Part shown: positions 50,378-50,793 of the stretch, one piece after another
Layout: every line of letters begins with the position of its first letter
Position numbering within the stretch: the stretch's first letter is position 1
Origin: a virus
Virus record (IMG/VR): IMGVR_UViG_3300046479_000013
Location: 1 to 61,806 of that record
Direction: 5' to 3' (one strand)
DNA length: 61,806 nucleotides
Position numbers and translations under genes: made by a program
Notes under the pieces: model-generated
What the model saw: the letters and a program-made list of their open reading frames with translations, nothing else
Databases searched by the model: none
What the model was told of the DNA's origin: nothing

Positions 50378-50793
50378 TGGTGGACCTGGAGGGAATCGAA
50401 CCCTCGTCCAAGAAGACTGACCTTGATAGGAATTACACGCTTCCTTGACCTTAGACCTCCTGGAGCCGGTGGTCAAGGAACCACTCCGGAGGGATCTGCG
50501 TTCGTCACCATTCGGGCCGCAACCCCTGTGATGGTCTATTCTCTAGCACAGAATCGGTAGGATTGCTCCACCCTATCTATGTTCGGAGTCAAGCGAGACT
50601 CATGACTCCTATCCTGCTTACGCTACTAGAGCGAGTTCGGAACCGGCGCGGACGCTGGAACCAATGAAGCGGGAGAGGGAACTAGCAACAAAGTTGGCAG
50701 TTTTGTTTCACATGATTATTAAAGTCGGCCATCATGCTTCCGCTGCGTGCCTATACAAGACCTAAATCAACCTGTCGAAACCGGGTCAGGCCC
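50378..50793 (-). ncRNA. ssrA: tmRNA (ssrA) with encoded CCA
   Basis: The 5' end GGGCCTGACCCGGTTTCGAC and the 3' end (T arm with TTCGATT, then CAGGTCC-A-CCA) are the tRNA-like domain; G3-U70 is present for alanylation. An internal frame from 50698 down to 50618 begins GCC-AAC and ends with E-L-A-L-V-A and TAA, a typical proteolysis tag end. The tag is 26 residues, longer than most. tmRNA rescues stalled ribosomes with SmpB; no smpB gene is visible in the window. Confidence 0.9.
50618..50698 (-). other. tmRNA tag reading frame
   Basis: Twenty-six codons read A-N-F-V-A-S-S-L and end S-E-L-A-L-V-A then TAA. The resume codon GCC is inferred from its place and from the A-N start; the ALVA end resembles known degradation tags. 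Confidence 0.75.

What the first reader, a model, noticed from the sequence alone, without database searches (positions are those of the whole stretch)
50378..50793. Phage-encoded tmRNA with an A-N...L-A-L-V-A tag
Both ends of the tRNA-like domain, the G3-U70 pair, encoded CCA and an internal tag frame ending in ALVA and TAA are present. Phage tmRNAs are known but rare. A 26-residue tag with its own sequence may send tagged proteins to different proteases than the host tag. The neighbouring plus-strand GIY-YIG gene starts 35 bases from its 5' end.
Basis: partly seen in the sequence, partly recalled or inferred. Interest (0 to 1): 0.8.

Follow-up and report, generated by a model that had tools for sequence, protein, structure and literature searches.

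The report
Phage tmRNA with a long tag
This bacterial virus carries its own complete copy of the RNA that rescues stalled ribosomes and labels unfinished proteins for destruction; such viral copies are already known, and this one differs mainly in an unusually long, new 26-residue label.

Summary
A complete one-piece tmRNA lies on the minus strand at 50793-50378 (RF00023, 97.1 bits, cutoff 47, all 374 model positions). It has the G3-U70 acceptor stem, T-arm, encoded CCA, a long H2 and PK1. From the expected resume codon runs a 26-codon frame, ANFVASSLSRFIGSSVRAGSELALVA, ending in UAA. Helices for H5, PK2, PK3 and PK4 can be drawn. ARAGORN misses it. The contig is an orphan fragment of a large phage with about 30 tRNAs, rIIA/rIIB, a CCA-adding enzyme, a Ro-like protein and NAMPT. 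Phage tmRNAs are known: 402 of 18,146 phage genomes (PMC9004378). The closest described parallel found is Mycobacterium phage Tonenili: a one-piece tmRNA in a tRNA array, the same acceptor stem, and a 25-residue tag ending AAALV. Of 86 distinct tags in a viral-contig sample, 14 are 24 residues or longer. No SmpB is in the window, and 19 of 20 compared phages also lack it, so it most likely uses host SmpB. 'Different proteases' is unsupported: an LVA end still directs fast degradation in E. coli (PMC3511798). Verdict: new member of a known kind.

The parts
50378..50793 (-). complete one-piece tmRNA (ssrA), nt 1 = 50793
   Evidence: RF00023 97.1 bits, model 1-374 of 374
50787..50793 (-). acceptor stem 5' strand GGGCCUG
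   Evidence: all 7 pairs form, G3-U70 present
50378..50405 (-). T-arm (GAGGG UUCGAUU CCCUC), acceptor 3' strand CAGGUCC, encoded ACCA
50745..50774 (-). H2 5' strand; pairs with 50409-50440
   Evidence: alignment; inner pairs checked; nested fold also pairs this region
50710..50742 (-). pseudoknot PK1 (CGG/CCG and GCAUGAU/AUCAUGU)
50621..50698 (-). tag reading frame, resume codon GCC at 50698-50696, ANFVASSLSRFIGSSVRAGSELALVA
   Evidence: A at -4 as in E. coli
50618..50620 (-). tag stop codon UAA
50621..50690 (-). helix H5: nt 104-112 pair with nt 165-173, so tag codons 4-6 pair with the last three codons (LVA); the extra length of the tag lies in its loop
   Evidence: 9 pairs including G-U pairs; single sequence, no covariation
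50575..50609 (-). PK2: 7-bp stem GGAGUCA/UGACUCC; second stem weak
50507..50551 (-). PK3 candidate: CUGUG/CACAG with ACCAU/AUGGU
50441..50492 (-). PK4: CCUCCGGAG/CUCC-A-GGAGG with a 10-bp second stem UUCCUUGACC/GGUCAAGGAA that abuts H2
   Evidence: a helix of 10 or more Watson-Crick pairs anywhere occurs in 18 of 300 shuffles
50828..51568 (+). divergent GIY-YIG (Seg-like) homing endonuclease; neighbour, not a tmRNA partner
   Evidence: phrog_314 E 3.9e-30; SegE_GIY-YIG below Pfam cutoff; relatives beside tRNA-Gln in Klebsiella phages

Best explanation
A functional phage tmRNA transcribed with the phage's minus-strand tRNA array. Shown by sequence: all tRNA-like and mRNA-like parts are intact. 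Inferred: 5' and 3' processing as for tRNAs, charging with alanine through G3-U70, binding of host SmpB, entry into ribosomes stalled on broken mRNA during infection, addition of Ala plus the 26-residue tag, termination at UAA, and degradation of the tagged protein by host ClpXP-type proteases through the ALVA end, probably without SspB-type delivery. The benefit would be keeping ribosomes free when host mRNA is being destroyed or host tmRNA is limiting.
For: RF00023 full-length match at twice the cutoff. G3-U70, T-arm, encoded CCA, H2, PK1, resume codon position, stop directly after H5, and PK4. Sits in an array of about 30 tRNAs with a CCA-adding enzyme. Same arrangement in Mycobacterium phage Tonenili (tmRNA between tRNAs, same acceptor stem, 25-residue tag) and in Myxococcus phage Mx1. 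19 of 20 compared phage records lack SmpB. An LVA-ended ssrA tag destabilises proteins in E. coli (PMC3511798).
Against: No expression data and no close relatives, so no covariation or tag conservation test was possible: pattern scans gave 0 hits and protein searches gave only distant relatives. ARAGORN misses it. Overall folding energy is unremarkable (z -1.35). SmpB could lie in the unsequenced rest of the phage. The host is unknown, so protease preference is inferred from E. coli.
Confidence: 0.8

Rival explanations
1. [quoted passage not shown]
For: Tag lacks the AANDENY segment that E. coli SspB needs (PMC8512704) and is 26 residues against the usual 10 (PMC11915505). Amino-acid recycling has been proposed for phage tmRNA (PMC9004378). 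Long tags recur in viral contigs (14 of 86 distinct tags at 24 or more).
Against: The ALVA end is still a working degron in E. coli. SspB-type delivery is not universal among bacteria (established knowledge). No data on the fate of tagged proteins.
Confidence: 0.12
2. A decoy that titrates SmpB of the host, as proposed for the tRNA-like-domain-only RNA of mycobacteriophage DS6A.
For: A tRNA-like-domain-only RNA inhibits tmRNA (PMC4131195, PMC11915505).
Against: Here the whole mRNA-like half, PK1, resume site and stop are intact, which a decoy does not need.
Confidence: 0.04
3. A passenger or decaying ssrA copy picked up from a host with no present role.
For: Phages acquire ssrA pieces by imprecise excision (discussed in PMC9004378); no close relatives to show selection.
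Against: Every functional element is intact although overall identity to the other one-piece viral tmRNAs compared is only about 56-66%, which decay would not preserve.
Confidence: 0.04

Closest known systems
tmRNA of Mycobacterium phage Tonenili (Bixzunavirus; a tmRNA of mycobacteriophage Bxz1 is listed in PMC4131195)
   Same: One-piece phage tmRNA of similar length (436 and 416 nt) inside a tRNA array, identical acceptor stem GGGCCUG/CAGGUCC, resume codon at nt 95 and 96, long tag (25 and 26 residues), no SmpB found; many mycobacteriophages also encode a Ro-like protein
   Different: Tag sequence unrelated (ATDTDATVTDAEIEAFFAEEAAALV); about 58% nucleotide identity overall; CCA not encoded in Tonenili
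tmRNA of Myxococcus phage Mx1 (not annotated in the record)
   Same: One-piece, in a tRNA array beside endonuclease genes, GGGCCUG 5' end, same T-arm sequence
   Different: Tag appears to be 14 residues, VNTNVFGSQMMAAA; resume codon GUC; no encoded CCA
Bacterial tmRNA (E. coli ssrA, RF00023)
   Same: All domains and G3-U70
   Different: Tag 26 against 10 residues, no AANDENY segment, ends ALVA rather than ALAA

Membership tests
tmRNA, standard one-piece form (RF00023) | Covariance model match above gathering score over the full length | tested here: met
   97.1 bits against 47; model 1-374
tmRNA, standard one-piece form (RF00023) | tRNA-like domain with G3-U70 alanine identity pair, T-arm and 3' CCA | tested here: met
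   GGGCCUG/CAGGUCC, GAGGG/CCCUC, ACCA
tmRNA, standard one-piece form (RF00023) | Resume codon about 11 nt after PK1 and a tag frame with a stop | tested here: met
   PK1 ends at nt 84, GCC at nt 96, UAA at nt 174
tmRNA, standard one-piece form (RF00023) | H2 and pseudoknots PK1-PK4 | tested here: met
   H2, PK1, PK2 stem 1 and PK4 clear; PK3 plausible, PK2 stem 2 weak; single sequence only
tmRNA, standard one-piece form (RF00023) | Charged with alanine, binds SmpB, tags proteins in cells | not testable with these tools
   Needs experiment
Complete phage-encoded trans-translation set (tmRNA plus SmpB) | SmpB gene in the same genome | tested here: inconclusive
   No PF01668 match in the 61.8 kb window, but the contig is a fragment; 1 of 20 compared records has it
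TLD-only decoy tmRNA (phage DS6A type) | tRNA-like domain without tag frame | tested here: not met
   Full mRNA-like domain present

The most novel reading that the evidence does not exclude
The long tag is an evolved phage-specific signal that changes which protease or partner receives the rescued protein, so that the phage redirects host quality control rather than merely supplementing it.
Probability: 0.08. Interest if true: 0.65.

Novelty: new member of a known kind. Interest (0 to 1): 0.3.

Why it matters
It adds a divergent, ARAGORN-missed example to the phage tmRNAs and suggests that surveys based on ARAGORN alone undercount them. It also shows that tags of about 25 residues recur in phages, as in Tonenili, so what long phage tags do can be put to a direct test.

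Tried and rejected
Close relatives were sought by NAMPT, rIIA, Dda-like helicase and Ro-like protein in viral contigs: 3, 0, 0 and 1 distant hits. A pattern from the 5' part and H2 gave nothing in viral or bacterial genomes. DNA similarity to phage records covers only the T-arm, about 8% of the query. Two early scripts for extracting tmRNAs had faulty patterns and returned nothing and a third caught only nine; the ARAGORN tally replaced them. The extracted G008 sequence was on the wrong strand and is not used. Recoding of TAG was considered because of a CTA-anticodon tRNA, but TAG ends 17 of 73 chosen ORFs. Match of tag codons to phage tRNAs is no better than chance (24 of 26, P 0.17).

Full report
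What is there. The stated interval holds a tmRNA gene on the minus strand, nt 1 at 50793 and nt 416 at 50378. Rfam RF00023 matches over all 374 model positions with 97.1 bits against a gathering score of 47, E 1.2e-36. It is the only above-cutoff tmRNA match in this 61.8 kb virus record. ARAGORN reports 30 tRNAs but not this gene.

Anatomy (sequence). The acceptor stem GGGCCUG/CAGGUCC pairs fully and contains G3-U70; the T-arm is GAGGG-UUCGAUU-CCCUC; ACCA is encoded. H2 runs from nt 20-49 against 354-385 with short interruptions; its inner helices CUUG/CAAG, AUAGG/CCUAU and CACGC/GCGUG are perfect (outer pairs were read by hand, since the coordinates tried for them were off, and they are supported by the fold). 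PK1 has stems CGG/CCG and GCAUGAU/AUCAUGU. Eleven nucleotides later, exactly where the model aligns the resume codon, stands GCC AAC, with A at -4 as in E. coli. The frame reads ANFVASSLSRFIGSSVRAGSELALVA and stops at UAA, nt 174-176. A nine-pair H5 joins nt 104-112 to 165-173, so the codons of the final LVA pair with codons 4-6, and the extra length of the tag lies in the loop of H5. PK2 stem 1, a PK3 candidate and PK4 follow; PK4 has a ten-pair second stem that abuts H2. A helix of ten or more Watson-Crick pairs occurs anywhere in 18 of 300 dinucleotide shuffles, so its weight comes from its position. Total folding energy is not exceptional (z -1.35).

Context. The record carries rIIA, rIIB, a tRNA nucleotidyltransferase, a weak tail fibre match, a Ro-like RNA-binding protein, a primase, a Dda-like helicase, NAMPT and a NadM-like protein, so it is a phage. 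It is a virus record of 61.8 kb and probably a fragment: no terminase or capsid gene was seen among the proteins scanned, though not all were scanned. Best protein matches are below 60% identity to any phage record. The GIY-YIG gene starts at 50828, 35 bases from the tmRNA 5' end, divergently; its relatives are Seg-like homing endonucleases, some beside tRNA genes. No promoter or terminator above chance lies around the tmRNA, which fits co-transcription with the minus-strand tRNAs (inference).

Comparison. Phage tmRNAs are described: Bxz1, Catera, Wildcat, phage G and others, and the TLD-only DS6A RNA (PMC4131195); 402 of 18,146 phage genomes (PMC9004378); huge phages (PMC7162821). The nearest parallel found is Mycobacterium phage Tonenili: tmRNA among tRNAs, identical acceptor stem, resume codon at nt 95, a 25-residue tag ATDTDATVTDAEIEAFFAEEAAALV. 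Myxococcus phage Mx1 has an unannotated tmRNA in a tRNA array (117.7 bits). In viral contigs sampled by T-arm patterns, ARAGORN gave 86 distinct tags; 14 are 24 residues or longer, and one other tag ends in LVA. That sample may include host or prophage flanks, because ssrA is a common integration site, and some of the calls may be false. Thus a 26-residue tag is long but not unprecedented.

SmpB. None in the window. Of 20 compared phage records, 18 of which gave some RF00023 match at E 0.001 or better (only 5 above the family cut-off), one carries SmpB. Most likely the phage tmRNA uses host SmpB.

Mechanism. Shown: the intact anatomy. Inferred: charging with alanine, SmpB binding, tagging, ribosome release, and degradation. 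The LVA end is a working degron in E. coli: LacI-LVA half-life about 13 min against about 8 min for LAA at 37 C (PMC3511798). The AANDENY segment needed by SspB (PMC8512704) is absent. There is therefore no reason yet to invoke a different protease; at most, delivery may differ.

Limits. No close relatives were found, so neither covariation nor conservation of the tag could be tested, and the host is unknown. The verdict is a new member of a known kind with a divergent long tag.

Noticed in passing
window 51771-51961 (-): A T-arm followed by a D-arm in permuted order matches the YrlA Y-RNA family (31.5 bits, below its cutoff of 69; E 5.8e-5 in a local search), in a phage that also encodes a Ro-like protein at 29730-31301. 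It could be a phage Y RNA; but tandem or broken tRNAs also give such matches, and most control genomes ring below cutoff.
   Followed up: partly
window 42475-42550 (-): tRNA with CTA anticodon, suppressor-like, although TAG ends 17 of 73 chosen ORFs.
   Followed up: partly
window 50086-50173 and 22192-22252 (-): tRNA matches above the Rfam cutoff that ARAGORN does not report; the first has an enlarged D-loop region.
   Followed up: no
Myxococcus phage Mx1 OR576727.2, 46646-47023 (L199): Unannotated tmRNA (RF00023 117.7 bits) whose 3' part lies under a short CDS named 'Hef-like endonuclease', probably a misannotation.
   Followed up: partly
L039, L097, L102, L149, L173: A family of viral permuted tmRNAs with long related tags (ANADTFDFSAMSFTGNTVSGKSKVALAA and kin, 27-31 residues); L133 and L155 share another long type ending FAV.
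   Followed up: no
IMG/VR record of L148 (G006): 215 kb contig with tmRNA and an SmpB gene about 2.3 kb apart, the only SmpB among 20 compared records.
   Followed up: no
window 47344-47745 (-): S-adenosylmethionine decarboxylase-like protein in the tRNA array (Pfam E 4.1e-11).
   Followed up: no
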